Of a stretch of DNA of 64,000 bases, positions 1,527 to 58,273 are shown in pieces; positions within the stretch are counted from its first letter, which is position 1; each line of letters opens with the position of its first letter. A model generated the notes under the pieces. It made no database searches, had not been told where the DNA came from, and was given only the letters and a program-made list of their open reading frames with translations. Source of the DNA: Microbacterium terregens (GTDB lineage: Bacteria > Pseudomonadota > Alphaproteobacteria > Sphingomonadales > Sphingomonadaceae); NCBI RefSeq assembly GCF_027922045.1, contig NZ_BSEX01000012.1, forward strand, positions 62,001 to 126,000, in the 5' to 3' direction. The position numbers were made by a program, and so were the translations under genes.

Positions 1527-1540
1527 CTGATCTAGCGCAG
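1527..1540. promoter_or_regulatory. CTGA-N6-TCAG-type box, one mismatch (manC)
   Basis: CTGATCTAGCGCAG. The right half is GCAG rather than TCAG; the core hexamer TCTAGC equals that of the box at 39654. It lies 152 bp before the manC start. A weak -10 candidate TCTGAT begins 20 bp downstream. Confidence 0.5.
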
Positions 1541-1692
1541 GGCGAGGCAACCACTCCGATTCTGATCGTAACGTCGCCTTGGCAGCGGATGCGGCCATCT
1601 CGATCGCCCGCCGCCGAAAGAATTCGGACCGGTGTCCCTCTTGGGAAAGCGCTGCTTTCCCCAGGGACTTAGCGAAAGAGGGGCGAGATCCC

Positions 1693-2768
1693 ATGCAGTT
1701 GATCCCTGTCATCCTGTCCGGTGGCTCTGGGACAAGGCTGTGGCCACTTTCGACCGAACAGACGCCTAAGCAGTTTCTGCCCTTGGCCGGCGAAAAGAGC
1801 CTTCTGCAACAAACCGTCCTTCGGGCCAGGAGCATGAGAGGCGCATTATCGCCGAGTTGAGTGCGGTGGGCTGCGCTCCCTCGCGACTGCTCCTCGAGCC
1901 CATTGGGCGCAACACCGCCCCCGCCCTTGCGATGGCTGCGCTCGAGAGCGTGGAGGAGGACAGCCTGCTGCTGGTCATGCCAAGCGATCATGTGATCAGG
2001 AACGCTGAAGCGTTCGGCAAGGCCGTTCATCGTGCGCTTTCATTAGCCGAAGACGGCTGGTTAGTGACGTTCGGTATCACGCCCGACCGCCCGGCAACCG
2101 GCTACGGCTACATCCACATGGGAGACTCGCTCTCCGGCCCGATATGCCGGGTGAACCGGTTCGTCGAAAAGCCCGAAGCCGCCCGCGCCGAGCGCATGCT
2201 CGCCGAAGGCAGTTATTTGTGGAACGCTGGAATATTTCTCCTGCGCTCCGACCGCCTCCTCGAGGAGCTCTCGATCCAAGCCCCCACGCTCTTGGGCTCG
2301 GTCCGCAAGGCGCTGTCCACTGGCCATCGCGAGGCAGGTCGGGTGATCCCCGATCGTGCGACCTTTGCCGCCATCGAAGCGCAATCGATCGATTACCTGG
2401 TCATGGAGCGCGCATCGCGCATGGCGGTCGTGCCTGTCGATGTGGGCTGGTCCGACATCGGGAGCTGGGACGCGCTCCACGAGGTCGAAACTCGGGACGA
2501 TAGCGACAATGCCTTCCACGGCGATGTGCTCGCCCTCGACAGCCAGGGCTGCCTGATCCGGAGCGATGGCCCCCGCGTCGCGGCCTTGGGCATATCGGAT
2601 CTTGTCATCGTTGCGACGGAGGACGTGGTCCTGGTGATACCCCGCGAGCGTGCTCAGGAAATGCGCCGGCTAGTACGCTTGGCAGCTGAGCTTCGAATCG
2701 ATCGACCTGGCCGAACTACTGGCGATGCTTTGCCCGCCAGCCGTTTCCCGCTCCTCGCTGATCCGTGA
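1693..2768 (+). pseudogene. manC: Mannose-1-phosphate guanylyltransferase, internal deletion and frameshift
   Basis: The enzyme makes GDP-mannose from mannose-1-phosphate and GTP. The first 45 residues hold the nucleotidyltransferase loop GGSGTRLWPLS and LAGEKSLLQQT. After about 1829 the reading continues in another frame at EHERRIIAEL, then ILLEP-like LLLEPIGRNTAPA, WNAGIF, FVEKP and VGWSDIGSW. Roughly 15-20 residues between these parts (the strand usually reading PLVV.N) are absent and the frame changes, so the gene yields either a 55-residue stub or a protein lacking the nucleotide loop. The C-terminal isomerase domain of bifunctional versions is also absent; a separate isomerase gene lies at 30.6 kb. 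A ribosome site GGGGCGAGA precedes the ATG at 1693. Confidence 0.8.
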
Positions 2769-3023
2769 TTTCGGGCAGGTGCGGGATCGAACGGATGCGT
2801 GATCGTCGGCAACGAGCATAAGCGCCGGATCTGGCTTCGACGCGCAATCGGTCGGTATCACCGCTCGGACCTGGCAAGAGCGAACTCTGGCCAAGCCACA
2901 ATCTCATCAAGTCGACCTCTTCCGAGAGTGGGCATCGGCTTGGGGCACCGCCTCAACGCGGCAGCCGAGGATCGAAGGCGGACAGGTGGGCTTAAGGGTT
3001 GGCCCCGGTCATAACCTTACGAC

Positions 3024-3263: not shown

Positions 3264-3333
3264 TCGTCTACCTCCGCCGACGTGATCTGCGAGACCCGTT
3301 GCTTGGCCAGGTCGCAAGGAGAGGATCAGGCCA

Positions 3334-3933: not shown

Positions 3934-3984
3934 CGGAAGAATGAGGGGCGATGGCGTCCCGATGCATCGGATCCGCCCTCCCGC

Positions 3985-4524: not shown

Positions 4525-4546
4525 CTTGCCCAGCCTTCATGCTTCC

Positions 4547-4557
4547 GGGGGGGGGGG
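4547..4557. repeat. G11 homopolymer between dnaK and grpE
   Basis: Eleven consecutive G on the + strand (C on the coding strand), 22 bp before the grpE start. It is the same length as the tract at 14800. Such tracts slip readily in replication and in sequencing. Confidence 0.9.
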
Positions 4558-4599: not shown

Positions 4600-6474
4600 T
4601 CACTTCTTCGTGTCGTCCGCCTCCTCGAACTCGGCGTCCACGATTCCATCGTCCGCAGCGGATGCGCTCCCGCTCTCAGCACGCTGAGCACTGACGACCT
4701 GCTGGGTGGCGGCCTGCAGGTCCTCACTTCTCTTGCGGATCTCGTCGATCTGCTCACCCTCCATGGCCGTCTTCAGCTTCGAGACGGCTTGTTCCACCGC
4801 CTCCCGATCGGCGGCGGCTACCCGGTCACCGGCATCCGACAGGGTTTTCTCGGATAGGAAAATCAGCGCATCGGACTGGTTCCGCGTCTCCGCCAGCTCG
4901 CGGCGCTTCCTGTCCTCGCTGGCGTGCTCCTCGGCGTCTCTGACCGCGCGCTTGATGTCCTCGTCGCTCAGGCCGCCCGACGACTGAATGGTGATCTTCT
5001 GTTCGCGCCCGGTGCCCTTGTCTGTGGCAGAGACGTTCACGATACCATTCGCGTCGATGTCGAATGTCACCTCGATCTGCGGCTCGCCACGCGGCGCCGG
5101 CGCGATGTTCTCGAGGTTAAACTGGCCGAGCAGCTTGTTGTCCTCGGCCATCTCCCGCTCTCCCTGGAAGACGCGGATGGTCACGGCGGGCTGGTTGTCC
5201 TCCGCTGTCGAGAAGGTCTGGCTCTTCTTGGTGGGGATGGTCGTGTTGCGATCGATCAGCTTGGTCATCACGCCGCCAAGCGTCTCGATGCCTAACGACA
5301 GCGGCGTGACGTCGAGCAAAAGCACGTCCTCGACTTGCCCCTTCAGCACGCCCGCCTGGATCGCTGCGCCCAGCGCCACGACCTCGTCAGGATTGACGCC
5401 TTGGTGTGGCTCCCGTCCGAAGATGGACTTCACCGCCTCGACGACCTTCGGCATGCGCGTCATGCCGCCGACCAGCACGACTTCGTCGAGCTGATCGGCC
5501 TTCAGGCCGGCATCCTCGAGTGCAGCCTTGCAGGGGCCGACAGTCCGGGAGATGAGATCATCGACCAGCGCTTCGAGCTTCGCGCGGGTGAGACGGATGT
5601 CGAGATGCTTCGGGCCGGATTGGTCGGCGGTGATGAACGGCAGGTTCACGCTCGTCTGCGATGCCGAGCTGAGTTCGATCTTCGCCTTCTCAGCGGCTTC
5701 CTTCAGTCGCTGCAGGGCAAGCCGGTCCTGACGCAGGTCGATCCCCTGCTCCTTCTTGAACTCATCGGCGAGGAAGTCGATTATCCTCTTGTCGAAGTCC
5801 TCGCCGCCGAGGAACGTGTCTCCGTTCGTCGACTTGACCTCGAAAACACCGTCGCCGAGCTCCAGAACGGAGACGTCGAAGGTGCCGCCGCCGAGATCAT
5901 AGACGGCGATCGTGCCGGTCTTCTTCTTCTCGAGGCCGTAGGCCAGCGCCGCAGCAGTCGGCTCGTTGATGATGCGCAGAACCTCGAGACCGGCAATGGT
6001 GCCTGCATCCTTGGTCGCCTGGCGCTGCGCATCGTTGAAATAGGCGGGCACCGTGATGACGGCCTCGGTGACCGGCTCACCCAGGTATTTTTCGGCCGTC
6101 TCCTTCATCTTGCGCAGGATGTGGGCGGAAATCTCGCTAGGGCTGGACTTCTTGCCGTTCACTTCGACCCATGCGTCACCGTTAGCGCCGGGGACGATCT
6201 TGTAGGGCACCATGCCCTTGTCCTTCTGGACGACGGGATCGTCGTATCTGCGGCCGATCAAACGCTTGATCGCGAACAGCGTCTGCTCCGGATTGGTGAT
6301 GGCCTGGCGCTTCGCCGCGGCCCCGACCAGCACCTCTCCGTCAGGGCGAAAGGCCACCATCGAGGGGGTTGTCCGCGCCCCCTCGGCATTTTCGATAACC
6401 TTGGGCTCCTTGCCCTCCATCACGGCGACGCAGGAATTGGTGGTGCCGAGATCGATGCCGATTGCTTTCGCCAT
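4600..6474 (-). CDS. dnaK: Molecular chaperone DnaK (Hsp70)
   Basis: 624 aa from [18 protein letters not shown]; the upstream in-frame ATG at 6486 is less likely. All Hsp70 signatures are present: [42 protein letters not shown], the linker [18 protein letters not shown] and a substrate-binding domain. It ends [10 protein letters not shown], the acidic tail that helps hold unfolded clients. It is an ATP-dependent cytosolic folding chaperone working with the J protein at 8.1-9.1 kb and GrpE. A perfect CTGA-N6-TCAG box sits 58-71 bp upstream of the start, so it probably belongs to the island regulon as well as to any heat-shock control. The frame is intact. Confidence 0.97.
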
Positions 6475-6531: not shown

Positions 6532-6545
6532 CTGACCTGGATCAG
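6532..6545. promoter_or_regulatory. CTGA-N6-TCAG box upstream of dnaK
   Basis: CTGACCTGGATCAG, exact. Its centre is about 64 bp upstream of the dnaK ATG. Only a weak -10 (CATCGT) lies at class II spacing. Confidence 0.75.
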
Positions 6546-12016: not shown

Positions 12017-12030
12017 CTGACATGAGTCAG
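12017..12030. promoter_or_regulatory. CTGA-N6-TCAG box upstream of the BON gene
   Basis: CTGACATGAGTCAG, exact, 87 bp before the ATG at 12117. A loose -10 (GAATAGGG region) lies 19-22 bp downstream. Confidence 0.78.
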
Positions 12031-14820: not shown

Positions 14821-14834
14821 CTGATCTATCTCAG
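14821..14834. promoter_or_regulatory. CTGA-N6-TCAG box between GT4 and peroxiredoxin genes
   Basis: CTGATCTATCTCAG, exact. Rightward, TAGGTT begins 21 bp after it (peroxiredoxin). Leftward, CAATAT begins 22 bp after it (GT4). It could drive both. Confidence 0.85.
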
Positions 14835-16866: not shown

Positions 16867-16880
16867 CTGATCTAAGTCAG
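16867..16880. promoter_or_regulatory. CTGA-N6-TCAG box between the 17M-like and hsp20 genes
   Basis: CTGATCTAAGTCAG, exact. Rightward, TAAGGT starts 22 bp after it, giving hsp20 a leader of about 175 bases. It is also 45 bp from the leftward gene start. Confidence 0.8.
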
Positions 16881-18690: not shown

Positions 18691-21300
18691 TTATTCAGCC
18701 TCGGCTTCGGCAGGCTGTTCCGCGCGCGTCTTGAACACCAGTTCGCTGTCGCCCTCGTCGATCGTGACGGTCGAGCCATCCGGCACCTGGCCCCGCAGCA
18801 GGAGGTCTGCCAGAGGATCCTGAAGATATCTCTGGATCGCACGCTTCAGCGGGCGAGCGCCATAGACCGGATCGTAGCCTACGCGGCCAAGCCACGCCCG
18901 TGCGCGATCGGTGAGGTCGAGACGGATCTTGCGGTCCTTGAGCAGGTTCTGGACACGCGTGACCTGGATATCGACGATCGGCCCCATGTCGGCCTGGCCG
19001 AGGCGATGGAACAGGATGATCTCGTCGAGGCGGTTCAGGAACTCCGGCCGGAAATGGCCGCGGACCACCTCCATCACCTGTGGCTCGACGCTTTCGACAG
19101 TCTGTCCTTCAGCCAGGTTCGAGAGGAACTGGCTGCCGAGATTGGAGGTCAGGATGATCAAGGTATTCTTGAAGTCGACCGTGCGGCCCTGCCCGTCGGT
19201 CAGGCGGCCATCGTCGAGCACCTGCAGGAGCACGTTGAAGACATCGTTGTGCGCCTTCTCGACCTCGTCGAACAGGATAACCTGATAGGGCCGCCGCCGA
19301 ACCGCCTCGGTTAGAACGCCGCCCTCCTCATATCCGACATAGCCCGGTGGCGCCCCGATCAACCGGGCGACGGAGTGCTTCTCCATGAACTCCGACATAT
19401 CGATACGAACCATCGCCGCGTCGTCGTCGAACAGGAAGCCGGCGAGCGCCTTGGTCAGCTCGGTCTTGCCGACGCCGGTCGGCCCGAGGAACAGGAAGGA
19501 GCCCATCGGACGATCGGGATCCTGCAGCCCGGCTCGGGCCCGGCGAATGGCCCGACTGACCGCTGCGACAGCCTGCTTCTGGCCGATGACGCGCTTGCCA
19601 AGCGCTTCCTCCATGTGGATCAGCTTCTCGCGCTCGCCCTCGAGCATCTTGTCAACCGGGATGCCGGTCCAGCGCGACACGACCGATGCGATGTCCTGGG
19701 CGGTCACCTCCTCGCGCAGCATGGCTCCCTGGCTCGCCTGCTGGGCATCGGCGAGCTGCTTCTCGAGCTGCGGGATGCGACCGTAGGCGAGCTCGCCGGC
19801 CTTGGCCAGGTCGCCGCTGCGCTGCGCTTGGTCGAGCTCGAGACGGGCTTGATCGAGCTGCTCCTTGAGCTTGGCTTCGGCCTGGATCTTCTCCCGCTCA
19901 GCCTGCCACCGCTGGGTGAGCTCCGCCGATTCCTGCTCCAGCTGCGCAAGATCGTGCTCGAGGTGCGTCAGACGGTCCTTCGACGCTGCATCCGACTCTT
20001 TCCTGAGCGCCTCTCGCTCGATCTTCAGTTGGATGATGCGCCGATCGAGGGTTTCGATCTCCTCCGGCTTCGATTCGACTTCCATTCGGATCCGGCTTGC
20101 CGCCTCGTCCATCAGGTCGATCGCCTTGTCCGGAAGGAAGCGGTCGGTGATATAGCGGTTGGAAAGCGTGGCGGCCGCGACAATGGCGCCGTCGGTGATG
20201 CGCACCCCGTGGTGCAGTTCATATTTTTCCTTGAGCCCGCGCAGGATCGAGATCGTGTCTTCGACCGTCGGCTCGCCGACGAAGACCGGCTGGAAGCGCC
20301 GCTGCAGCGCTGCGTCCTTCTCGACATATTTCCGGTACTCGTCGAGCGTGGTCGCGCCGATGCAGTGGAGCTCGCCGCGGGCAAGCGCCGGCTTCAGCAG
20401 GTTGCCGGCATCCATCGCGCCCTCGGTCTTGCCCGCCCCGATCAGCGTATGCATCTCGTCGATGAAGAGGATGATGTCGCCCTCGCCTGCCTTGACCTCG
20501 TCGAGGACGCCCTTCAGCCGCTCTTCGAACTCACCGCGATATTTCGCGCCGGCGATAAGGCTGCCCATGTCGAGCGCCATCAGCTTCCGGTCCTTGAGCG
20601 TGTCGGGAACGTCGCCGTTGGCGATACGGAGTGCCAGCCCCTCGACGATGGCCGTCTTGCCGACGCCGGGATCGCCGATCAGCACGGGATTGTTCTTGGT
20701 GCGGCGTGCGAGGATCTGGACCGTGCGGCGGATCTCCTCGTCGCGGCCGATCACCGGATCGAGCTTGCCGTCCTTGGCGGCCTGTGTGAGGTCTCGAGCG
20801 AACTTCTTCAGCGCGTCGTAGCGGTCCTCCGCGCTCGCAGTATCCGCGCTGCGCCCACCGCGCAGCTGATTGATCGCCGTGTTGAGTGCCTCAGCAGTCA
20901 GGCCCGCGCGAGCGAGCGCCTTGCCGGCCGCTGCGGTGGAAGCGAGGGTGAGTGCCAGAAGCAGCCGCTCGACCGTGACATAGCTGTCTCCCGCCTTCTG
21001 AGCGATCTGCTCCGCCTGATCGAGAAGGCGTACGGCATCATTGTCTAGCCCCGGCGGCTGGGACGCTCCGCTTCCCGTGACCGATGGAAGCTTGGAGAGG
21101 GCCGCATCGATTTCGCTGGTCGCCAGGTCCGGATTTCCACCGGCGGCGCGGATCAGGCCCGCTGCCATGCCCTGCTCGTCCTCGAGCAGGGCCTTGAGCA
21201 TATGCTCCGGCGTGATCCGCTGGTGGTTGAGCCGAATTGCGACGGTCTGCGCAGCCTGGAGAAATCCCTTTGCGCGATCCGTATACTTTTCAAGATTCAT
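18691..21300 (-). CDS. clpB: ClpB disaggregase
   Basis: 869 aa from [17 protein letters not shown], with AGGAGGAAA upstream; longer in-frame starts lack a site. Clp N domain (1-145), AAA1 with GDPGVGKT and [10 protein letters not shown], the long coiled-coil middle domain (about 405-525), and AAA2 with GPTGVGKTE and [12 protein letters not shown]. It pulls proteins out of aggregates with DnaK/CbpA. It is ClpB rather than the plasmid ClpK/ClpG type: there is no extra zinc-finger N-terminus. The frame is intact over 2.6 kb. Confidence 0.96.
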
Positions 21301-21492: not shown

Positions 21493-22995
21493 TCAGGAGC
21501 GTCCCGTCAACTCGACGCCGACGAACCGCGCCGGCGCCGAGCCGCGCTTGACCAGCAGCAACACTTGCTTGCGCCCCGCCTTCCGCGCCGCCGCAATCAA
21601 GCCCACAGCATCTTGCGCGCCGCGCACGGGTTGCTGGTTGATCGAGAGGATGATGTCTCCTTCGCTGAGACCTTTGGCCGCGGCGTCGCTGGAGGGGTCG
21701 ATCCCGACGATGACGAGACCCTGCGTTGCTGGATCGACCCGGAGCTCGCCGGCCAAGGCCGGGTTTAGGGGCCTGACAGACAGGCCGAGCCCGGCCGATG
21801 CGCTCGGCTGCCCGCTGCCATCGTCCTCGAGGTCGAACTCCTCATCCTGCCCATCAAGCTTCGCCTCGGCCGGCCGTTCAGCGACGACTGCCGTCAGCGT
21901 CTTCCGTGCGCCCTGGCGAAGCACCTCGAGCGTCACCCGGGACCCGACCGGCGCGGCGGCAACCAGGCGGGCGACAGAGCTATCCGGGGTGATCTCGGTT
22001 CCGTTCACGCGCAGGATGACATCGCCCTGCTGGAGGCGCGCACGCGCCGCAGGGAGATTCGGCTGCACCTCCGCGACGATCTCACCGCGGTTTTTCTGCA
22101 GGCCGAGCGCTGCGGCGACATCCTCGGTAACAGGCTGCAGAAGGAGCCCGAGGTAGCCACGCTGCACGCGGCCGCCGGTCCTCAAAGTCTCCACGACCGG
22201 CTTGGCGATCTCCGCAGGTATCGCGAAGCCAAGACCGACATTGCCGCCCGTTGGCGAGATGATCGCCGAGTTGATACCGATGACATTGCCCTGCATGTCA
22301 AAGAGCGGACCGCCCGAATTTCCCGAGTTGATCGAGGCATCCGTCTGGATGAAGCTGTCATAGGGTCCGGCTCGCAGGTCGCGATGCAGGGCGGACACGA
22401 TGCCCGCGGTCACCGTCCCTCCCAGCCCGTAGGGATTTCCGATCGCGAGAACCCAGTCACCGGTGCGCGCACCGGATGAGTCGCCGAACCGGACGAACGG
22501 CAGGTTCTTGGCCTCGATCTTAAGGACGGCGATGTCGGAGGCCTCGTCCCGGCCGACCACGCGCGCTGGAAACTCCTGCCCTCCTGTCAGCGTGACCTTG
22601 ATCGCCTGGACCTGTACGCCTGAGCCGCGACCGGCAACGACATGGTTGTTGGTCACCACATAGCCGTCCGCCGAGATGAGAAAGCCCGACCCGAGCGACG
22701 TCGCATTGCGCGGCATGGGTGGTCCGCCCAGTCCCGGGAAGGGGAATAGCTCGCCGAACGGGAAGTCCCCCGGAATGTTCGGCATCTTGCGGGCCTTGAT
22801 GCGCGAGGTCGTCGAGATATTCACGACAGCCGGGGAGAGACGTGCCGCCAGGTCAGCGAAGCTCGCGGGAGCGCCGCGTGGGGACTCTTGGCGCTGACCT
22901 GCGCCCTGCGCGTTGAGGGGCGCTGGCTGTGCGTGACTGCGCGTGTCGCAGGCGACTGCAAGCAACAACGCTGGAACGAGAACGAAGCTTCGCAT
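21493..22995 (-). CDS. degP: DegP/Do-family periplasmic serine protease
   Basis: 500 aa. Signal sequence SFVLVPALLLAVAC; the Cys leaves a weak lipobox possible. Trypsin-like domain with His in TNNHVVAG, Asp in ASDIAVLKIEA and Ser in GNSGGPLFD. Two PDZ domains follow (about 290-375 and 405-490) separated by an acidic linker EEFDLEDDGSG. It degrades or refolds damaged envelope proteins. A perfect box with TAGCTT 21 bp beyond it lies 105-118 bp upstream of the start. Confidence 0.94.
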   Translation of the reverse strand: MRSFVLVPALLLAVACDTRSHAQPAPLNAQGAGQRQESPRGAPASFADLAARLSPAVVNISTTSRIKARKMPNIPGDFPFGELFPFPGLGGPPMPRNATSLGSGFLISADGYVVTNNHVVAGRGSGVQVQAIKVTLTGGQEFPARVVGRDEASDIAVLKIEAKNLPFVRFGDSSGARTGDWVLAIGNPYGLGGTVTAGIVSALHRDLRAGPYDSFIQTDASINSGNSGGPLFDMQGNVIGINSAIISPTGGNVGLGFAIPAEIAKPVVETLRTGGRVQRGYLGLLLQPVTEDVAAALGLQKNRGEIVAEVQPNLPAARARLQQGDVILRVNGTEITPDSSVARLVAAAPVGSRVTLEVLRQGARKTLTAVVAERPAEAKLDGQDEEFDLEDDGSGQPSASAGLGLSVRPLNPALAGELRVDPATQGLVIVGIDPSSDAAAKGLSEGDIILSINQQPVRGAQDAVGLIAAARKAGRKQVLLLVKRGSAPARFVGVELTGRS

Positions 22996-23099: not shown

Positions 23100-23113
23100 C
23101 TGATCTTTGTCAG
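23100..23113. promoter_or_regulatory. CTGA-N6-TCAG box upstream of degP
   Basis: CTGATCTTTGTCAG, exact. Leftward, TAGCTT begins exactly 21 bp after the box. Confidence 0.85.
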
Positions 23114-26885: not shown

Positions 26886-26886
26886 A

Positions 26887-30422: not shown

Positions 30423-30436
30423 CTGATCTAGCTCAC
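30423..30436. promoter_or_regulatory. CTGA-N6-TCAG-type box, one mismatch
   Basis: CTGATCTAGCTCAC. Leftward, TAGCGG begins 22 bp after it. It precedes the truncated exported-protein gene. Confidence 0.5.
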
Positions 30437-32043: not shown

Positions 32044-32057
32044 CTGATCCATGTCAG
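32044..32057. promoter_or_regulatory. CTGA-N6-TCAG box upstream of the 31957-31439 gene and manA
   Basis: CTGATCCATGTCAG, exact. Leftward, TAGCCT begins exactly 21 bp after it. Confidence 0.85.
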
Positions 32058-35923: not shown

Positions 35924-35937
35924 CTGACATACCTCAG
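35924..35937. promoter_or_regulatory. CTGA-N6-TCAG box between DUF5335/YfdX and the Crp/Fnr gene
   Basis: CTGACATACCTCAG, exact and identical to the box at 48964. Leftward, GATTCT lies 22 bp beyond it. Rightward it is about 118 bp before the regulator's start, so it may also give autoregulation. Confidence 0.78.
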
Positions 35938-36054: not shown

Positions 36055-36696
36055 ATGAATCGCGGGCGAAAGGTCGTTCCTCCGCCTCTTGGCAACGGCT
36101 TCAACTCCAAGCTCATTATGCTGAAGGACCGGCAGGAACTGCCGGCAGAGCCTGAGTCGGACGGCCTGTACTGGGTCCTCTCCGGAGCGCTTCAAACCAG
36201 CATCATCTCGGAAGACGGCCGGCGGTGGATCGGCGGCTTCTACCTGCCGGGCGAGTTTCTCCTTCTCGAGCGTGACGAGGTGCGCAGCCAGTTCGCGCAG
36301 GCTCTGTGCCCGACGTCGCTCATCATGACCCACCGAAGCGTGCTCGAGGGGCTATGGCGGTTCGATCAATTCACCTGTGTCACCATCACGACGTGGTTCC
36401 TTCGGACGTACCGCGTCGCACTTCGCACGGGCTTCCTCCTGGGCCGATCGAACGCCATGGAAAGACTGGCGTTTCTCCTGCTCGACCTCATGCAGAGGCT
36501 CGAGGGACGCCGGCACTTCCATTTGCTCATGTCCAGGGCCGATATCGGCGATCACCTAGGGCTCACGAGCGAGACCGTCACGCGGACGTTCACGCTTCTC
36601 CAGCGGCACAGCTACGTGCAGGTGAATGGTCGTCACCTGGAGATCCTGGATCCGGCCGGTCTGGCCCGCCTGGCCTCCGCAGTGGTCACAACCTGA
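36055..36696 (+). CDS. Crp/Fnr-family regulator (candidate box-binding protein)
   Basis: 213 aa from ATG 36055 behind GGAGAGGGAG; ATG 36034 is in frame. Cyclic-nucleotide-like beta-barrel with LYWVLSGALQTSIISEDGRRWIGGFYLPGEFLLLE, dimer helix, then a winged helix: RADIGDHLGLTSETVTRTFTLLQ. The recognition helix has E-T-V-T-R, matching E-T-I-S-R of Fnr, whose Glu and Arg read TGA. The N-terminal Fe-S cysteines of Fnr are missing; only two Cys exist (ALCPTS, FTCVTI). So DNA choice should be Fnr-like but signal sensing different. It is the best candidate for the CTGA-N6-TCAG boxes. Confidence 0.88.
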   Translation: MNRGRKVVPPPLGNGFNSKLIMLKDRQELPAEPESDGLYWVLSGALQTSIISEDGRRWIGGFYLPGEFLLLERDEVRSQFAQALCPTSLIMTHRSVLEGLWRFDQFTCVTITTWFLRTYRVALRTGFLLGRSNAMERLAFLLLDLMQRLEGRRHFHLLMSRADIGDHLGLTSETVTRTFTLLQRHSYVQVNGRHLEILDPAGLARLASAVVTT

Positions 36697-36783: not shown

Positions 36784-37518
36784 ATGAAATTCATACCGTG
36801 TGAAGACTGCGCGCTTCGCCGGTGGGCGCTGTTCAAGCAATTTACAGCGCCCGAGTTAGGCTTTGTGCGAGCGCTCAAGAGCAACCAGGTGGATGTTCCG
36901 GCCCGGCGCGTCATCATCGAGCCCGGTCGCTTCGGCGGGCAACTCTACACGCTCTATGCTGGCTGGGCTTATCGCTACAAGCTGACACCGAACGGCCAGC
37001 GACAGATCGTTGACGTCCTGCTCCCCGGCAGCCTGATCGGGCTTCAGCAGCTGATGTTGGGGGATTCCGAAAGCGGCGTCGAAAGCCTGACACCGGTGAC
37101 GCTCTGCGTGTTGACCGGCCGGCATATCGACGAGCTGTTTCAGCAGCATAGCCAGTTATCCGAGGCGATGGTCTTCGCACTCATGGAGGATCAGCGCCGC
37201 GCCGATCGGCACATGGCGCTGGTCGCCAAGCAGAACGGCCCGGAACGTCTCGCCTACTTCCTGCTTGAGCTCGTCGACCGATTAGCGGCGCTTGGCCTTG
37301 GCCAGGACGCGATGTCCTACTTCCCGCTGCAGCGCCGTCATTTGGCCGATCTGCTTGGACTGTCCGAGACGCATGTCAGCCGCTCGATGCGGGAATTGCG
37401 CCGCGATGATCTCGCGACAATCGCCTCGAACTCGCTGATCATCCGTAACCGATTGGCCATGACCACCTTGTCGGGTTATACGCTGGCCACCCGACAGCGC
37501 CCTCGCCTCCTGCTCTGA
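36784..37518 (+). CDS. Second Crp/Fnr-family regulator
   Basis: 244 aa. Begins MKFIPCEDCALRRWALFKQF with a CxxC pair at residues 6 and 9 and a later Cys near 108; a fourth cluster ligand is not obvious. Beta-barrel with LYTLYAGWAYRYKLTPNGQRQIVDVLLPGSLIG, long helix, then HLADLLGLSETHVSRSMRELRRDDL. The helix reads T-H-V-S-R, the alphaproteobacterial 'HV.R' variant rather than E-x3-R, so its operator probably differs. It follows the first regulator by 87 bp and may respond to oxygen or redox. Confidence 0.87.
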   Translation: MKFIPCEDCALRRWALFKQFTAPELGFVRALKSNQVDVPARRVIIEPGRFGGQLYTLYAGWAYRYKLTPNGQRQIVDVLLPGSLIGLQQLMLGDSESGVESLTPVTLCVLTGRHIDELFQQHSQLSEAMVFALMEDQRRADRHMALVAKQNGPERLAYFLLELVDRLAALGLGQDAMSYFPLQRRHLADLLGLSETHVSRSMRELRRDDLATIASNSLIIRNRLAMTTLSGYTLATRQRPRLLL

Positions 37519-39653: not shown

Positions 39654-39667
39654 CTGATCTAGCTCAG
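39654..39667. promoter_or_regulatory. CTGA-N6-TCAG box between hsp20 and the orphan kinase
   Basis: CTGATCTAGCTCAG, exact. Rightward, TATCCT begins 23 bp after it. Leftward, TAGGAA begins 21 bp after it; before the IS insertion this promoter would have served hsp20. Confidence 0.82.
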
Positions 39668-39750
39668 TCCAAGATCGGCAGCGGTCGCGATATCCTGCAA
39701 CGTAAGAGCGCGACCGTAGTTCGGAAGCAGCGGCCATCGAAGGAGTGGTC

Positions 39751-43376: not shown

Positions 43377-43390
43377 CTGAGCTATGTCAG
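43377..43390. promoter_or_regulatory. CTGA-N6-TCAG box between the epimerase fusion and cardiolipin synthase
   Basis: CTGAGCTATGTCAG, exact and identical to the box at 58260. It lies in a 572-bp gap; no good -10 at class II spacing was seen on either side. Confidence 0.72.
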
Positions 43391-48623: not shown

Positions 48624-49133
48624 GGACCGGACGCCTCTCGCGGGGATCAAGTGCTTTCCGCCAAGGGCGGCATGGGTCGGGGCTGCTTAGCGTGCCGTGG
48701 GATGCAGCGGCGCTCGGGCGTAAAGAGATAGTCGGTTGAAGCTGCCTTCCCACGTTCGCCGATGGCAGTGGGCACCTGCACTAAGCGTCCAGGATCGATC
48801 AGGCCGGCGCGCGGCACCATTGGAAGGGCGTCGTCGAGCCTCGTCCACTCGATCGGTGCCGCCCGTCGAGCCCTCGACGGTCTTTGGCCTCTGAGCTGGC
48901 GGCACTCGTCACCTCCGTCTTGCGCAAGCCACCGAAGAGTCGCTCAGGTGAGGAGGACGCACACTGACATACCTCAGCTGGGTTCTATCCTGCTGGGTCA
49001 AGCACCCCTCATCTTTTCGACGGGTAAAGCGGCTGCTCAAGGGTGTGAGGGCGACGTTGAACGCGATCCTGACGCCGCCGGTTCGGCTGAGCGGACGTCA
49101 ACAGCGCCCTATCCGTGCCGCAGCGTCTCTTCA
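48624..49133. other. Non-coding gap with one box
   Basis: 510 bp between an antiporter start and the YCII stop. Open frames here have poor codon bias and overlap the YCII gene in antisense. It holds the box at 48964 and nothing else I can support. Confidence 0.5.
48964..48977. promoter_or_regulatory. CTGA-N6-TCAG box upstream of the second antiporter
   Basis: CTGACATACCTCAG, exact and identical to the box at 35924. It lies 340 bp from the antiporter start; no good -10 was found, so the target is uncertain. Confidence 0.65.
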
Positions 49134-49654: not shown

Positions 49655-49822
49655 TCAAAGCGTCCAACTCGGCGGATCGCTTGCGGGAAAAGACTCTACG
49701 ATCGCTTCGTCGACGGGGTCGAGATCCGTCCCCTCCTGCCCTTCCTCGGCCTCGCGCTCATCAGGTGCCAATTCGGGCTTCTTGTCCTTGTCCTGATCCA
49801 TCGGCGCTTTAGGGTCCGTCAT
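49655..49822 (-). CDS. Acidic 55-aa protein with ESFPASDPP motif
   Basis: Start ATG 49822 behind GGAGGAT. Highly charged N-terminus (PMDQDKDKKPELAPDEREAEE), then DPVDEAIVESFPASDPPSW. The same motif ends the NDUFS4-like protein at 26.3 kb. A box 90 bp upstream with CAGAAT at 21 bp supports real expression. Unknown function; probably disordered apart from the motif. Confidence 0.6.
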   Translation of the reverse strand: MTDPKAPMDQDKDKKPELAPDEREAEEGQEGTDLDPVDEAIVESFPASDPPSWTL

Positions 49823-49910: not shown

Positions 49911-49924
49911 CTGATTCAGATCAG
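49911..49924. promoter_or_regulatory. CTGA-N6-TCAG box upstream of the ESFPASDPP small gene
   Basis: CTGATTCAGATCAG, exact. Leftward, CAGAAT begins 21 bp after it. Confidence 0.8.
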
Positions 49925-50028: not shown

Positions 50029-50679
50029 TTAGGCCGGTTCGCCCGTCCTTTCGATGAGGCTTGCCCAGACGGCGAGGAGAAGCGCTGCCAGCGCTGCAAA
50101 CCAGAGGCCGTCGAGACCCAATCGGTGAAAGCTAAGCGCGCCTATGATCGCGCCTGCGACGAGGCTGGACCACAGCAACAGGTGTGGGAGCCAGTCCCAT
50201 CTGGCTCCGCCCAGGAGCGCCATGCCGATCCGCTGCCCCGCCTTAACGACGGCGCCGGTCATATAGGTGAGGCCGATGCTTACTTCGCCATCGCGCTGGA
50301 AGACGAGGTTCTCCGCTCCCATCGCAGCGGCCATGAGCAGCGGTGCAAATGCGCCTGCGCCGACGTGCGCGAGCGTAGCGCTCGAGGCGAGCAGCAATGA
50401 CACTAGTGCCAGAACAGCGGACTTGCGGCGCTTCTAAACCCGGGCGGCCACGAGCGTGGCGGCGACCACTCCCGTGAGGAAAGCACCAATCAACCCCAGC
50501 GCGAGCAACGCCGTCACCGACCCTTCGGCCGCGCCGATGGCGAGCCGTGTGGAGTTGCCGCTCATGAACGACACAAACATCCCGCCTGCGGCCAGGAAGC
50601 CCAGCCCGTCGACGTAGCCCGCCAGCCCAGCAAGACAGAAGGCGAGCCACTTTCGTCGCCGTCCAAGCACGCCGATCAT
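50029..50679 (-). pseudogene. YoaK/DUF1275 membrane protein interrupted by an in-frame TAG
   Basis: MIGVLGRRRKWLAFCLAGLAGYVDG, GGMFVSFMSGNSTRLAIG and GVVAATLVAARV end at TAG (50434-50436). The same frame then goes on with SLLLASSATLAHVGAGAF, LLMAAAMGAENLVFQR and LTYMTGAVVKAG, the rest of the family. Only the one stop separates the parts, with no shift. Six or seven helices in total. Either a point-mutation pseudogene or, less likely, readthrough. Confidence 0.75.
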
Positions 50680-50965
50680 TGAACCTACATACTCCTGCTG
50701 CACGCACCTGATGCCCGTGCGAGGAGGTTGCTTCCACTCCGCATCGCCAGACTGCGCCAGCGTTAGAGGGTTCATCAGGCGGATCGCCAGCCACACAGGC
50801 GCCGGGCGCAAGCTCCCTAGGCTTTGCGACCGGGCCGATGCAATGTGAGTGTCTCGCAGGCGGCACAGCGCCTGCTGCTGGAACCGGTCGGCAGGGAACG
50901 CCGAACGCTTCCCTGCCGCCTTAGCGAGACTGCTGCGACCTCAGCCGATCGCGATGCGCCGGCTA

Positions 50966-52447: not shown

Positions 52448-52461
52448 CTGATCTAAATCAC
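52448..52461. promoter_or_regulatory. CTGA-N6-TCAG-type box, one mismatch (BI-1)
   Basis: CTGATCTAAATCAC. Leftward, TACGCA starts 22 bp after it. It may also serve groES, 202 bp to the right. Confidence 0.55.
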
Positions 52462-52662: not shown

Positions 52663-52959
52663 ATGCATTTCCGTCCCCTGCACGACCGTGTCGCTGTCCG
52701 TCGTATCGAAGCCGAGGAAAAGACGGCCGGCGGCATCATCATCCCCGACACCGCCAAAGAGAAGCCGCAGGAAGGCGAGGTCGTTTCCGTCGGCCCCGGC
52801 ACCCGCGACGAGAACGGCAAGCTCGTCGAGCCCATGGTGAAGGCCGGCGATCACGTCCTTTTCGGCAAATGGTCCGGAAGCGAGGTCAAGATCGGTGGCG
52901 AGGAACTGCTCATCATGAAGGAGAGCGACATCCTCGGTATCGTCGAGAGCGAAGCATAA
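52663..52959 (+). CDS. groES: Co-chaperonin GroES
   Basis: 98 aa. [40 protein letters not shown] and a mobile-loop/roof pattern are intact. AGGAGG precedes the ATG by 9 bases. It caps GroEL for folding. No full CIRCE element was found upstream, so HrcA control is not evident. Confidence 0.96.
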
Positions 52960-52968
52960 GCGAGTTAA

Positions 52969-54636
<1,668 letters not shown>

Positions 54637-54689: not shown

Positions 54690-56678
54690 TCAGGCGACGG
54701 CTCCGGCGGCTTTGGATCGGGCCCGGATCTCGGCGAGCTTCGCTGATAGTTCGTCCTGCCGAAACGGCTTCATGAGACGCGCGAAATGCGGCTCGATCTC
54801 GCTGTTCTCTGCGTAGCCGGAGACGATCAGAACCGGGGTGCGTGGACCCAATTCGCGGCTAAGCGCCGCGCCCGACATACCGCTCATCAAATGGTCGGTC
54901 ACCACGACGGTCGGGCTCAGACCGTCCTTTACCAGCTCTAACGCCTGCTCTGCCGATTTTGCCTCGACCACCTCATAGCCGATCGCGTTCAGCATCTGGC
55001 TGACGCTCGACCGAACGAGATCGTCGTCGTCAACAAGGAGGGCTGTTCCTTCCTGCGGCGTCTGGCGCTCGACGATCGGTTCTTCACGGCGCGGGAGCTC
55101 CGTCGAGACAGGAAGAAGAATCTCCACCCTGGTTCCTGCGCCGGGAGCGGTCGTGATGGTGAGGGTCCCCCCCAGCTGTCGGGCGAGACCGTGGGCCATC
55201 GAAAGGCCGAGCCCGGTTCCCTTGCCCAGTCCCTTGGTCGAGAAGAAGGGCTCAATGGCTCGCCTGGCGGTCTCCTCATCCATGCCGCTTCCGGTGTCCG
55301 AGACAGAGAGGCTGATATACGGTCCGGGCGTCAGGCCCCTGGCGTCATCGCCGGCCACTGTCTGCGCCGATACGGCGATCTGCAACGTGCCCCCATCGGG
55401 CATGGCATCACGCGCGTTCACGCAAAGGTTGAGCAAAGCCATCTCGAGCTGGTTGTGATCGGCACGTGCGGGCGGCAGCTCCTCAGGCACTTCGAGCACC
55501 AGCTTGATCTTCGGCCCGATCGTCGAGCCGACCAAATCGGCCATGCCGCGAACCAATGCGGCCATGTCGATGGCGCGAAGCTGCAGCGGTTGCTGGCGCG
55601 CGAAGGCCAGGAGCCGCTGGACGAGGGCCCTGGCTCGTTCGGCCGACTGCATGGCGCCCTCGATCAGCCGGCGCTGGCGCTCGGTGCCCACACCGCTGCG
55701 GATCAGGATGTCCAGGCCGCCGACGATCGGCGTCAAAAGGTTGTTGAAGTCATGCGCGACTCCGCCGGTCAGCTGACCCATCGCCTCGAGCTTCTGCGCC
55801 TGCCTGAGCGCCTCCTCGGCCCTCTTGCGGTCGGTGATGTCGATGGCCTCGACGATGAGCGCCAACGTGTCGCCGTGGGGCCCGCGCATCGGTCTCATCC
55901 CGACATCGAACGTGCGGGGGCCAATCGGCAGATGGATGTTCAGCTCCCTTTGCAGGGTTTCGCCGACCGCAACACGGCCGACCCCACTCTCCACGACGTC
56001 GCACAGGTCAGGCGACCCGGCAAACCAGGGCGTTTCCCATAAGGGCTTCCCTACGACATCCTGGAGCTGCCCTCCAATCCCCGCCATGGCGGTTGCGTTC
56101 GCGTCCAGCACGGTACCGTCAACATCGATGAGCAGCTGGTACTGGTTGTTCGTCTGGAAAATCGCGCGCATCCGCGCCTCGCCTATGGTGAGCTCGGCGG
56201 TGCGCTCCTCGACCTTGCGCTCAAGGGACCCCGCCAGGCTGCGAAGTTCCTCAAGGCGCGCCCGCGCTTCGTACTGACGCCGCCGGCCGCGAAGTGCGGC
56301 GCGCGCGAGGCTGATGAGGGTCGTGGGGTGAAAGGGCCGTTCAAGAAAGGTGACGTTGTTGAGGACTTCCAGGTAGCGGGCAATTTCGGGATTCCGCTCC
56401 AGGCCACTGCCATGTTGGACCAGGAGTACGAACGGGAAGTCGGACCAGTCAGGCTGCTGCTCGATCCAGGACCTGAGCGCGCTGATGTCGGCGCTGATCA
56501 GGGCTTCGGAGGTGACCAGGGCGAGCCCCGCTCCCGCCCGAATCTCGTCGACGAGTTGCTCGATGGAGGCGCACTCGATGCCTTTCACGCCGGCATCGGC
56601 CAGAACGGTAGCGGCGACTTCCGCATCGCGCCCGAAGGGGGCGAGGATCAGCGCGCGCTCGGAAAGCTCCGGGATCAA
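54690..56678 (-). CDS. Hybrid sensor histidine kinase/response regulator
   Basis: 662 aa. N-terminal receiver-like domain (1-130, degenerate), coiled coil, PAS domain (about 165-290, NQYQLLIDVDGTVLDANATA), HisKA with GGVAHDFNNLLTPIVGG, catalytic domain with NLCVNARDAMPDGG, DTGSGMDEETARRAIEPFFSTK and GTGLGLSMAHG, and a C-terminal receiver ALLVDDDDLVR with VVVTDHLMSGMSG (phospho-Asp). Cytoplasmic, no membrane helices. Its ATG overlaps the kaiC stop by 4 bp, so it is co-translated with KaiC and probably signals with it. Confidence 0.93.
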   Translation of the reverse strand: MIPELSERALILAPFGRDAEVAATVLADAGVKGIECASIEQLVDEIRAGAGLALVTSEALISADISALRSWIEQQPDWSDFPFVLLVQHGSGLERNPEIARYLEVLNNVTFLERPFHPTTLISLARAALRGRRRQYEARARLEELRSLAGSLERKVEERTAELTIGEARMRAIFQTNNQYQLLIDVDGTVLDANATAMAGIGGQLQDVVGKPLWETPWFAGSPDLCDVVESGVGRVAVGETLQRELNIHLPIGPRTFDVGMRPMRGPHGDTLALIVEAIDITDRKRAEEALRQAQKLEAMGQLTGGVAHDFNNLLTPIVGGLDILIRSGVGTERQRRLIEGAMQSAERARALVQRLLAFARQQPLQLRAIDMAALVRGMADLVGSTIGPKIKLVLEVPEELPPARADHNQLEMALLNLCVNARDAMPDGGTLQIAVSAQTVAGDDARGLTPGPYISLSVSDTGSGMDEETARRAIEPFFSTKGLGKGTGLGLSMAHGLARQLGGTLTITTAPGAGTRVEILLPVSTELPRREEPIVERQTPQEGTALLVDDDDLVRSSVSQMLNAIGYEVVEAKSAEQALELVKDGLSPTVVVTDHLMSGMSGAALSRELGPRTPVLIVSGYAENSEIEPHFARLMKPFRQDELSAKLAEIRARSKAAGAVA

Positions 56679-58156
56679 TGCCGGTCTTCGATCAAGTCGG
56701 GCGACTCCGCGAACAGGCTGCGCACGCCTCGGGCAGCCCCTTGAAAGGCGACGACTGCTTCTCCGACGCGGACGCCTTCGGCTCCAATGCTGAGCTCCCG
56801 GACCGTGTCCTCATGAGCGCCCGTGCGCTTCTTGACGACCGAGATGGCGCGACGAATGCGGCCGCGCATTTCGAAATAGCGCAGCAGGATGACCGTGTCC
56901 GCAAGGTAGGTGACGTCAACGGGGGTCTTCGGGTCGCCCAGGAGGCCATGCTGTGCCAGGGTGACGAGGGTCGTTGCGCCCTGCCGATTCAGATACTGCA
57001 GCAGCTCATGCATGTGGAGCACCAGAGCATTTTCGCCCGGCATCGAGGCCTGGTAGCCATTGAGGCTGTCCACCACGACTGTCTTTGCGTCGTTGTCCTC
57101 GACACATCTACGAACGCGCGCCGAGAACTCGCCTGGCGAGAGTTCCGCCGCATCGATTTGCTCGGCCTTGAGGGCGCCGGATTCGATCATCGCCCCAATG
57201 TCGATTCCCAAATCCCGCGCGCGGTCAGCGAGGAGACCGATCTCCTCGTCGAACACGAACATCGCCGCCTTCTCGCCTTTGGCCACCGCCGCGGCGACGA
57301 AGGTCAATGCCAGCAGCGACTTTCCAGTGCCGGCGGGACCGAGGATCAGCACGCTCGATCCCCGCTCCAGGCCGCCGCCCAAAAGGCCGTCCAGCCCCTC
57401 CGCCTCGGTGGTAACCCTGTCGCGTTCGAAGCTGGTGCGATGCTCGGCCGAGATCAGGCGCGGGAACACGCGCGCGCCACCCTTCTCGATCAGGAAGTCG
57501 TGATAACCGCCACGGAAGCCCCGCCCCCGATACTTTACCACCCTGATCCTGCGCCGCTCCGGCCCATACTCTCTGGGAATCTCTTCCAGTCGGATGACGC
57601 CGTGGGCGACGCTATGGACCGTCTTGTCCTCGGTATCGGTGGTCATATCATCGAGCATGACGACGATCGTGCCCTGCCCGGCGAAATAGTGCTTCAGAGC
57701 GAGCACCTGGCGGCGGTAACGAAGCGAGCTCTGCGACAGCAGACGTATTTCGGACAGGCTGTCCAGCACCAGCCTGGCAGGCTTAAATCGCGTGAACGCC
57801 TCGAAAATCCATCGGGTCATCTCCACCAGCTCGAGATCTGAGGAGTAGAGCAGGCTCTGCTGCTGCTTCTCGTCGATGAGGCTGTCCGGGGAGATCAACT
57901 CGACGATCTCGACGCCATCCAGGGTCCAGACGTGTTCGGCCGCGGTCGCTCGAAGCTCTTCCTCGCTTTCCGAGAGCGTGAGGTACAAAACCTTCTCGCC
58001 CTTCCGCACGCCTTCGAGCAGGAACTGCATCGCGACCGTCGTCTTGCCGGTGCCCGGCATCCCTTCGAGGAGGAACACCCGGCCGCGGCTCAAGCCACCG
58101 CTCAGGATGTCGTCGAGGCCCGGCACCCCCGTTGCTGCAGGATCTTCGCTACTCAC
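56675..58156 (-). CDS. kaiC: KaiC-family double ATPase
   Basis: 493 aa with two RecA-like domains: Walker A GMPGTGKTT (32-40) and GPAGTGKSL (near 278), each with a DSL(S/N) Walker B region (LVLDSLSEI, VVVDSLNGY). The C-terminal block DVTYLADTVILLRYFEMRG corresponds to where cyanobacterial KaiC carries its Ser/Thr phosphosites; by eye these positions read Thr-Tyr. There is no kaiA or kaiB nearby. Non-cyanobacterial KaiC proteins with an attached kinase are linked to stress and adaptation. A perfect box lies 104 bp upstream. Confidence 0.92.
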   Translation of the reverse strand: MSSEDPAATGVPGLDDILSGGLSRGRVFLLEGMPGTGKTTVAMQFLLEGVRKGEKVLYLTLSESEEELRATAAEHVWTLDGVEIVELISPDSLIDEKQQQSLLYSSDLELVEMTRWIFEAFTRFKPARLVLDSLSEIRLLSQSSLRYRRQVLALKHYFAGQGTIVVMLDDMTTDTEDKTVHSVAHGVIRLEEIPREYGPERRRIRVVKYRGRGFRGGYHDFLIEKGGARVFPRLISAEHRTSFERDRVTTEAEGLDGLLGGGLERGSSVLILGPAGTGKSLLALTFVAAAVAKGEKAAMFVFDEEIGLLADRARDLGIDIGAMIESGALKAEQIDAAELSPGEFSARVRRCVEDNDAKTVVVDSLNGYQASMPGENALVLHMHELLQYLNRQGATTLVTLAQHGLLGDPKTPVDVTYLADTVILLRYFEMRGRIRRAISVVKKRTGAHEDTVRELSIGAEGVRVGEAVVAFQGAARGVRSLFAESPDLIEDRH

Positions 58157-58259
58157 CGTTCGACTGTCCCCCGCCCAAGCATGGCTGCATTCGCGAAATC
58201 TGCGCAGCAGCGGCCGATGCCCCGCGGGAAAGGGTGCCGGATCAGGAGTGTAACCGTCG

Positions 58260-58273
58260 CTGAGCTATGTCAG
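58260..58273. promoter_or_regulatory. CTGA-N6-TCAG box upstream of kaiC
   Basis: CTGAGCTATGTCAG, exact and identical to the box at 43377. No clear -10 at class II spacing on the kaiC side. Confidence 0.75.

What the first reader, a model, noticed from the sequence alone, without database searches (positions are those of the whole stretch)
1527..58273. An island-wide palindrome, CTGA-N6-TCAG, marks a new Crp/Fnr-type regulon
I count 13 exact copies (6532, 11943, 12017, 14821, 16867, 23100, 32044, 35924, 39654, 43377, 48964, 49911, 58260) and 3 with one mismatch (1527, 30423, 52448). All are between genes. Eight fixed bases predict about one chance copy in 64 kb. The neighbours are chaperone, protease, redox, envelope and sensor genes. 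TGA-N6-TCA is the shared core of Crp and Fnr sites, but the outer C/G pair fits neither E. coli consensus (TGTGA-N6-TCACA, TTGAT-N4-ATCAA). Two pairs are identical over all 14 bases (35924/48964 and 43377/58260). My search of coding sequence was not exhaustive.
Basis: partly seen in the sequence, partly recalled or inferred. Interest (0 to 1): 0.95.

Follow-up and report, generated by a model that had tools for sequence, protein, structure and literature searches.

The report
Private FixK-like switch for stress island
A block of stress-survival genes found on plasmids of several sphingomonad bacteria carries one short DNA address in front of many of its genes, and that address is likely read by the block's own regulator, a predicted variant of the FixK/FNR family whose changed reading surface would keep it apart from ordinary FixK/FNR circuits.

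Summary
The window has 14 exact CTGA-N6-TCAG (shuffle mean 1.25, maximum 5; one copy, 10861, is inside a gene). Spacer 6 gives 14, every other spacer from 0 to 24 gives 5 or fewer. The window is a sphingomonad stress island (DnaK, ClpB, DegP, Hsp20, GroESL and others) that also occurs on six annotated plasmids, where 74 of 74 exact sites are intergenic and recur before the same genes. A -10-like hexamer peaks 22 bases after the palindrome, which predicts a class II activator site at -41.5. In 298 family genomes, the three with a homologue of island regulator P0001 (36055-36696) have the most TA-centred sites. P0001 is FixK-like, but its recognition helix reads SETVTR where FixK2 has LETVSR. 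Plasmid pNXO2 carries two such islands: one with 15 CTGA and no TTGA boxes beside a P0001-type protein, one with 10 TTGA and no CTGA boxes beside two canonical IETVSR regulators. Best reading: a dedicated FixK variant with altered specificity runs the island's own regulon. Binding and activation are inferred, not shown. New variant of a known kind.

The parts
6532..6545 (.). CTGACCTGGATCAG, upstream of dnaK (centre 64.5 bp from ATG)
   Evidence: conserved in 6 of 6 plasmid islands
11272..11285 (.).
   Evidence: orthologous position is an exact site in 6 of 6 plasmid islands
11943..11956 (.). site with -10-like TATCCT at gap 21, reading into the dps-type gene
12017..12030 (.). site upstream of the BON-domain gene
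14821..14834 (.). site with -10-like TAGGTT at gap 21, reading into the AhpC/redoxin gene
16867..16880 (.). site between hypothetical 16169-16819 (-) and Hsp20 17091-17552 (+); best -10-like hexamer in the window points to Hsp20, in L021 and L022 to the hypothetical gene
23100..23113 (.). site with -10-like TAGCTT at gap 21, reading into the DegP-like protease gene
30423..30436 (.). one-mismatch site; exact in L023 and L025, one-mismatch in the four other plasmids
32044..32057 (.). site with -10-like TAGCCT at gap 21, upstream of 31439-31957 and of 30572-31423 (orthologues annotated mannose-6-phosphate isomerase)
35924..35937 (.). site between the DUF5335/yfdX genes (-) and the regulator gene P0001 (+)
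39654..39667 (.). site with -10-like TATCCT at gap 23, upstream of the histidine-kinase-like gene 39745-40491
43377..43390 (.). site between the epimerase/VKOR gene (-) and the cardiolipin synthase gene (+)
48964..48977 (.). site upstream of the cation:proton antiporter region; same 14-mer in L023 (42490), not found as an exact site there in the five other plasmids
49911..49924 (.). site upstream of the small gene 49655-49822
52448..52461 (.). one-mismatch site between Bax1-I (-) and groES (+), conserved in 5 of 6 plasmids
58260..58273 (.). site upstream of the KaiC-like / PAS-histidine-kinase pair
36055..36696 (+). P0001, FixK-like Crp/Fnr regulator with recognition helix SETVTR; proposed reader
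36784..37518 (+). P0002, second Crp/Fnr-type protein (LSETHVSR); less likely reader
4600..6474 (-). DnaK gene, predicted regulon member
21493..22995 (-). DegP-like serine protease gene, predicted regulon member
18691..21300 (-). ClpB gene, island gene
52663..54636 (+). GroES and GroEL genes, island genes
56675..58156 (-). KaiC-like ATPase gene, predicted regulon member, next to a PAS histidine kinase gene (54690-56678)

Best explanation
CTGA-N6-TCAG recurs in the intergenic regions of a plasmid-borne sphingomonad stress island, where it is likely the binding site of the island's own FixK-like regulator P0001 (36055-36696), predicted to activate the genes from the class II position, about -41.5. 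Shown by the calls: the enrichment and spacing, the intergenic placement, the conservation before orthologous genes, a -10-like hexamer at a fixed distance for about half of the sites, and co-occurrence with P0001 across genomes. Inferred: P0001 keeps the Glu and Arg of the E-x3-R core that reads TGA, but carries Ser where FixK2 has Leu195, which contacts a thymine of the box, and Thr where FNR and FixK have Ser. This would shift the preferred half-site from TTGA to CTGA and insulate the island's regulon from the canonical FNR/FixK proteins that some of its hosts also carry. The input signal is unknown. P0001 lacks an N-terminal cysteine cluster, so its activity or its transcription is probably set by something other than an Fe-S oxygen sensor, possibly the histidine kinases whose genes also carry the site.
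For: Enrichment, spacing and outer-base controls. Six plasmid islands: 11-14 exact sites each, 74 of 74 intergenic, at matching distances before orthologues. -10-like hexamer at gap 21-23: 6 of 13 exact intergenic window sites (random-position rate 0.013) and 5 of 8 G104 sites (rate 0.021); over 190 flanks in 79 clusters the score peaks at gap 22 among offsets 0-69. Co-occurrence: 3 of 298 family genomes have a P0001-type protein at E <= 1e-35, and the same three rank first to third of the same 298 for CTGANNTANNTCAG (13, 11, 7; next 5). G104, regulator 52% identical to P0001: 8 of its 78 genome-wide copies lie in 23 kb around that regulator gene. Same-plasmid contrast on pNXO2: 15 CTGA and 0 TTGA in island 1, 0 CTGA and 10 TTGA in island 2. 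Clade-invariant TSETVTR in 11 of 11 aligned members; of 18 readable helices outside the clade 1 has Ser before the Glu (SSETVSR, P0108) and none has Thr before the Arg. L021 plasmid: no close P0002, P0001 homologue 60% identical with the same helix, 11 CTGA sites kept. In G001 the P0001 orthologue is the only one of 12 HTH_Crp_2 hits with Glu-x3-Arg in register, by my reading. FixK2 L195-thymine contact and FixK2 box: PMC9104804, passages. FNR E209/S212/R213: PMC2908626, passages.
Against: No binding or expression data. About half of the exact window sites (7 of 13) lack a -10-like hexamer at the strict score, and in the window alone the averaged profile is only modest (best gap 21, 2.29; next 31, 1.79; then 22, 1.78; mean 0.35, sd 0.8). 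The hexamer weights and cut-off are mine and were set after I had looked at the window flanks; G104 and pNXO2 island 2 had not been looked at for this. The TA-centred pattern was chosen after sites of G001 and G104 had been seen, and the borders of pNXO2 island 2 were drawn from its TTGA places. The site before P0001 has no good -10 pointing at P0001 in the plasmid islands, although it has in G104; the pNXO2 site 27441 has none either. Three of six plasmid islands also hold one TTGA palindrome, 56 bp from a CTGA site. P0002 homologues co-occur with P0001 in all three genomes, so genome-level co-occurrence does not separate the two. The chromosome that goes with L021 was not seen.
Confidence: 0.82

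Rival explanations
1. The second island regulator, P0002 (36784-37518), reads the palindrome, alone or together with P0001.
For: P0002 lies next to P0001 and co-occurs with it in G001, G059 and G104; its homologue in G104 is 65% identical and lies inside the same motif cluster.
Against: The L021 plasmid keeps 11 CTGA sites without a close P0002. In the ungapped register LGLSETHVSR has Thr, not Glu, at the position of FNR Glu209 (the register is my reading), so the usual TGA contact would be missing. P0002 gives no account of the CTGA/TTGA contrast on pNXO2.
Confidence: 0.08
2. A host chromosomal regulator, canonical FNR/FixK or of another family, reads the site.
For: Some hosts encode canonical IETVSR regulators (G059 5 of the 14 hits read out of 18, G104 1 of 4), and alphaproteobacterial FnrL and FixK2 have sites with C on one arm (CTGA-N6-TCAA entries in PMC2908626 and PMC9104804, passages).
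Against: In G001 none of 12 HTH_Crp_2 hits other than the P0001 orthologue has Glu-x3-Arg in register, yet the site cluster is there. The two canonical regulators encoded in pNXO2 island 2 sit among TTGA boxes, with no CTGA box in that island. The sites stay with the island across hosts.
Confidence: 0.07
3. The palindrome is not a regulator site but a methylation, uptake or other repeated DNA signal.
For: A short gapped palindrome repeated many times is also what such signals look like (general knowledge, no call).
Against: 74 of 74 intergenic, fixed distance to a -10-like hexamer, same orthologous gene fronts, and a lower density on the rest of the plasmids, for example 9 of 24 copies outside the 48-96 kb island of the 374-kb pNXO2.
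Confidence: 0.02

Closest known systems
FixK2 of Bradyrhizobium diazoefficiens and its FixK2 box (PMC9104804, passages; structure 4i2o)
   Same: Best sequence match in the PDB to P0001 (E 5.5e-22); 14-bp palindrome with a TGA-N6-TCA-type core; listed targets include groEL5, hspC2 (Hsp20), a universal stress protein and dnaJ. That FixK2 has no Fe-S cysteine cluster is recalled.
   Different: Box is TTGA/C-N6-T/GCAA rather than CTGA-N6-TCAG; recognition helix LETVSR rather than SETVTR; the FixK2 network is described for microoxic, anoxic and symbiotic life (abstract), not for a plasmid-borne island.
FNR / FnrL regulons (PMC2908626, passages)
   Same: Crp/Fnr fold (Foldseek top hits are FNR of A. 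fischeri, TM 0.82 by query length); Glu and Arg of the recognition helix; the same -10 gap is seen for the TTGA boxes of pNXO2 island 2 (5 of 10).
   Different: No N-terminal cysteine cluster in P0001 (cysteines at 85 and 108 only); CTGA in place of TTGA; the Ser212 position is Thr.
tLST, transmissible locus of stress tolerance, mainly of beta- and gammaproteobacteria (PMC8290217, passages)
   Same: Horizontally acquired stress islands with overlapping gene kinds: Hsp20, YfdX, HdeD-like DUF308, thioredoxin, KefB-type antiporter, DegP.
   Different: The review passages give a promoter 63 bp upstream of orf1, a Mer-like regulator gene, repression by Cpx at alkaline pH, and further promoters predicted in silico. 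Here sixteen dispersed sites (13 exact and 3 orthologue-supported one-mismatch) share one box, and a Crp/Fnr protein is encoded in the island.

Membership tests
Crp/Fnr superfamily, FixK-like | Effector-type beta domain plus C-terminal HTH_Crp | tested here: met
   Pfam HTH_Crp_2 2e-16; cNMP_binding 3.1e-5, below its curated cut-off; model pLDDT 82.9 matches FNR and FixK2 folds
Crp/Fnr superfamily, FixK-like | Glu and Arg (E-x3-R) of the recognition helix | tested here: met
   E173 and R177 invariant in 11 of 11; aligned to FixK2 ETVSR
Canonical FNR/FixK/DNR specificity group | Ser before the Arg, and a hydrophobic residue (FixK2 L195) before the Glu | tested here: not met
   Thr176 and Ser172 invariant in 11 of 11 clade members
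Canonical FNR/FixK/DNR specificity group | TTGA-N6-TCAA target boxes | tested here: not met
   Window: 0 TTGA, 14 CTGA palindromes; pNXO2 island 1: 0 TTGA, 15 CTGA; but one TTGA palindrome in each of three of six plasmid islands
FNR sensu stricto | N-terminal cysteine cluster for a 4Fe-4S oxygen sensor | tested here: not met
   P0001 cysteines only at 85 and 108
CRP | TGTGA-N6-TCACA sites and Arg before the Glu | tested here: not met
   2 GTGA-N6-TCAC palindromes in the window; the residue before Glu is Ser
Class II activator promoters | Site centred near -41.5 from the start of transcription | tested here: inconclusive
   Predicted from the -10-like hexamer peak at gap 22; no start sites mapped
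tLST | Archetypal gene order with orf1(dna)-sHsp20-ClpK and a promoter before orf1 | tested here: inconclusive
   Gene kinds overlap; order and ClpK not compared; dispersed sites differ from the promoter described

The most novel reading that the evidence does not exclude
Mobile stress islands have split one ancestral FNR/FixK code into two insulated codes that can run side by side in one cell: TTGA boxes with I/L/V-E-T-V-S-R readers and CTGA boxes with S-E-T-V-T-R readers, separated by the outer base pair and two residues of the recognition helix. pNXO2 carries both circuits on one plasmid.
Probability: 0.6. Interest if true: 0.78.

Novelty: new variant of a known kind. Interest (0 to 1): 0.68.

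Why it matters
If true, it is a naturally occurring, sequence-legible case of how a paralogous regulator escapes crosstalk: the same fold, spacing and promoter geometry, with one base pair and two helix residues changed, and both versions resident on one plasmid. It gives a dispersed regulon and a named candidate reader to a stress island that resembles tLST, whose constitutive expression is described as mediated by factors not fully elucidated (PMC8290217 passage). It makes part of the specificity code of the FNR/FixK family directly testable, and it would offer an orthogonal FixK-type promoter system.

Tried and rejected
Own-genome tests were not possible: no genome is held for the window, so G001, G002, G059, G104 and PLSDB plasmids were used instead. 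Raw CTGA-N6-TCAG counts were taken in four island-bearing genomes only (73, 70, 78, 118) and most of those copies lie outside the islands, so the family survey used the TA-centred pattern; raw counts in island-free genomes were not taken. One-mismatch sites as a class are at chance, so only orthologue-supported ones were kept. Searches of 396 order and 385 class genomes with the clade alignment at E <= 1e-45 found no member beyond G001; the samples were drawn evenly, are not exhaustive, and at most seven or eight candidates per genome were scored. Of the three genomes of G104's genus only G104 matched. In one search the loci L001 and L002 were reversed by mistake, so their rows are not used; both were left out of the -10 statistics. 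Gene limits in the window come from my own simple gene caller and the ORF list, so start codons are approximate. Phenylobacterium zucineum island (L027): 8 TTGA and 1 CTGA palindromes, regulator helix PETLCR; its -10 enrichment is weak (1 of 8, p 0.077), so it serves only as a loose comparison. In pNXO2 island 2, 8 of the 10 TTGA sites are clear of annotated genes; 240464 overlaps and 240757 lies inside the small annotated gene 240474-240770. A methylation-type or uptake signal was considered and rejected on placement. Literature: a search for five spellings of the motif found 0 papers. Searches on Sphingomonas stress islands, tLST and FixK/FNR specificity listed no paper whose title or start of abstract describes this box. 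Passages were read of PMC10434288 (no Crp, FixK or island in the text), PMC9104804, PMC2908626, PMC1802743 and PMC8290217; no paper was read whole. The library lacks most subscription journals, so this is not proof of absence.
Full report
OBSERVATION. The pattern CTGA-N6-TCAG has 14 exact matches in the 64-kb window, against a mean of 1.25 and a maximum of 5 in 100 dinucleotide-preserving shuffles. Changing the spacer from 0 to 24 gives 14 matches at 6 and at most 5 elsewhere. With the outer base varied, palindromes NTGA-N6-TCAN' number C 14, G 2, A 0, T 0. Matches with up to one mismatch are not above chance as a class (36, shuffle mean 28.15).

WHAT THE WINDOW IS. Pfam scans of 50 predicted proteins show a stress island: DnaK, a DnaJ-type co-chaperone, Usp, a ferritin-like Dps-type protein, BON, AhpC/redoxin, two Hsp20, a thioredoxin, ClpB, a DegP-like protease, rhomboid, DUF308 (HdeD-type), YfdX, a PLD-type cardiolipin synthase, two cation/proton antiporters, Bax1-I, GroES/GroEL, a KaiC-like ATPase with a PAS histidine kinase, and two adjacent Crp/Fnr-type genes. 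The same kind of island is annotated on six PLSDB plasmids: NZ_CP065714, NZ_CP018821, NZ_CP011450 (pNXO2), NZ_AP017656, NZ_CP065669 and NZ_CP119128; four of the six are typed conjugative, two non-mobilizable. Part of it is on contigs of S. paucimobilis NBRC 13935 and S. trueperi DSM 7225.

CONSERVATION AND PLACEMENT. The six plasmid islands (L021-L026) hold 11, 11, 14, 13, 14 and 11 exact sites; 74 of 74 are intergenic while 14-23% of each stretch is non-coding. They sit at nearly constant distances before the same genes: dnaK 64.5-66.5 bp, BON 92.5-93.5, redoxin 108.5-111.5, hypothetical 16169-16819 52.5-54.5, the HK-like gene 67.5-90.5 (the L001 and L002 rows of that call are mis-oriented and not used). 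On pNXO2 another site, 27441, precedes yfdX, transketolase, transaldolase, gnd and zwf, without a good -10.

PROMOTER GEOMETRY. Over 190 flanks in 79 similarity clusters, a -10-like hexamer score peaks at a gap of 22 bases after the palindrome, above all other offsets from 0 to 69. With a strict score, 6 of 13 exact intergenic window sites have such a hexamer at gap 21-23 on one side (random-position rate 0.013, binomial p 8e-9); G104 5 of 8; the six plasmids 5-6 of 11-14 each, which are orthologues and not independent of one another. Limits: the weights and the cut-off are mine and were set after I had read the window flanks by eye; in the window alone the averaged profile is modest, with its best value at gap 21 (2.29) and the next at 31 (1.79). 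G104 (best gap 22) and the TTGA boxes of pNXO2 island 2 (best gap 22, 5 of 10 sites) were not looked at beforehand. A hexamer at -12 to -7 with a gap of 22 puts the palindrome centre at -41.5, the class II activator position (family knowledge, recalled). Start sites are not mapped, so this is a prediction.

P0001 (36055-36696) is closest in the PDB to FixK2 (4i2o, E 5.5e-22). Its AlphaFold2 model (mean pLDDT 82.9) matches FNR and FixK2 folds, with the recognition helix starting at Ser172. Aligned to FixK2 LTLETVSR and to A. fischeri FNR LTVETISR, P0001 reads LTSETVTR. In an alignment of eleven clade members, the others 36-78% identical to P0001, T171-S172-E173-T174-V175-T176-R177 are invariant. 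Of 112 proteins then held, 86 carry TSETVTR; the other readable helices are TIETVSR 7, TVETVCR 4, TVETVSR 2 and five types with one each, among them SSETVSR, the one with Ser before the Glu; 8 were not matched by the pattern. A paper on FixK2 states that L195 makes hydrophobic contact with a thymine of the DNA (PMC9104804, passages). Another states that FNR Glu209, Ser212 and Arg213 are implicated in specific binding and that the Ser position is well conserved across FNR, FixK and DNR (PMC2908626, passages). From this I infer that Ser172 and Thr176 underlie the change from TTGA to CTGA.

TESTS OF THE LINK. (a) In 298 genomes of the family, 3 have a P0001-type protein at E <= 1e-35: G001, G059 and G104. 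In the same 298, the pattern CTGANNTANNTCAG is most frequent in G059 (13), G001 (11) and G104 (7); the next value is 5. If ranks were random the chance of this match is 1 in C(298,3), 2.3e-7; the TA-centred pattern was chosen after sites of G001 and G104 had been seen, so the test is not fully blind. (b) G104 carries a 52%-identical homologue on a 3.4-Mb contig; 8 of its 78 copies lie in 23 kb around that gene, among Hsp20, Dps, BON, YfdX and DUF308 homologues. (c) On pNXO2 the 24 CTGA and 11 TTGA copies separate: island 1 (48-96 kb) has 15 and 0, island 2 (208-261 kb, borders drawn from the TTGA places) has 0 and 10; the remaining 9 CTGA and 1 TTGA lie elsewhere (Fisher p 3e-7, sites treated as independent). 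Island 1 encodes the P0001-type protein. Island 2 encodes two IETVSR regulators; the N-terminus of one, P0113, reads CPGCEIRNRALC, as in FNR-type oxygen sensors (the likeness is recalled). (d) The L021 plasmid has no close P0002, keeps a P0001 homologue of 60% identity with the identical helix, and keeps 11 CTGA sites. (e) In G001, of 12 HTH_Crp_2 hits only the P0001 orthologue has Glu-x3-Arg in the right register, by my reading. In G059, 14 of 18 hits were read: 5 IETVSR and 1 SETVTR; in G104, 1 IETVSR and 1 SETVTR of 4.

AGAINST. There is no binding or expression evidence. P0002 homologues co-occur with P0001 in all three genomes. Three of six plasmid islands have one TTGA palindrome 56 bp from a CTGA site. 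Seven of 13 exact window sites lack a strict -10. The site before the P0001 gene lacks a -10 pointing at it in the plasmid islands but has one in G104, so autoregulation is open. FnrL and FixK2 target lists hold sites with C on one arm, so insulation may be partial. The chromosome that goes with L021 was not seen.

COMPARISON. It works like a FixK/FNR class II regulon, and P0001 belongs to the Crp/Fnr superfamily. It does not meet two defining features of the canonical FNR/FixK/DNR specificity group, the helix residues and the TTGA box. The FixK2 target table also holds groEL5, an Hsp20, a universal stress protein and dnaJ, so the type of target is shared while the address has changed. The island resembles tLST in gene kinds, but that locus is described with a promoter upstream of orf1, Cpx repression, and regulation that is not fully elucidated (PMC8290217, passages).

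Noticed in passing
NZ_CP011450.1 208-261 kb (L067, L068): Second stress and fermentation island on the same plasmid, with two FNR/FixK-type regulators (TIETVSR) and ten TTGA-N6-TCAA boxes: pentose phosphate genes, phosphoketolase, acetate kinase, oleate hydratase, copper genes.
   Followed up: partly
NZ_CP011450.1 27441 (L035): CTGAGATATGTCAG about 220 bp before yfdX-tkt-transaldolase-gnd-zwf; possibly a further regulon member outside the window's gene set. The same 14-mer or its reverse complement occurs outside the island on three other listed plasmids (W01, W02, W04).
   Followed up: partly
window 50029-50811: DUF1275 (YoaK-type) protein split into two ORFs in the same frame, while L023 and L024 are annotated with one gene of 651 bp.
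   Followed up: no
window 24312-25568 and 38316-39419: DDE_5 and rve-type transposase genes inside the island; 24219-24997 is 91.5% identical to a Croceicoccus plasmid.
   Followed up: no
window 56675-58156 and 54690-56678: KaiC-like ATPase gene next to a PAS histidine kinase gene with a receiver domain, with a CTGA site upstream; possible input or feedback to the circuit.
   Followed up: no
L021 14788, L022 15540, L026 17429: Single TTGATCTCCATCAA palindrome 56 bp from a CTGA site in three islands, an exception to the C/T separation.
   Followed up: no
P0001 residue 85: One cysteine (ALC motif) present in 10 of 11 clade members; possible redox switch in place of an Fe-S cluster.
   Followed up: no
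L027 (Phenylobacterium zucineum plasmid): Analogous stress island with 8 TTGA and 1 CTGA palindromes and a regulator with helix PETLCR.
   Followed up: partly
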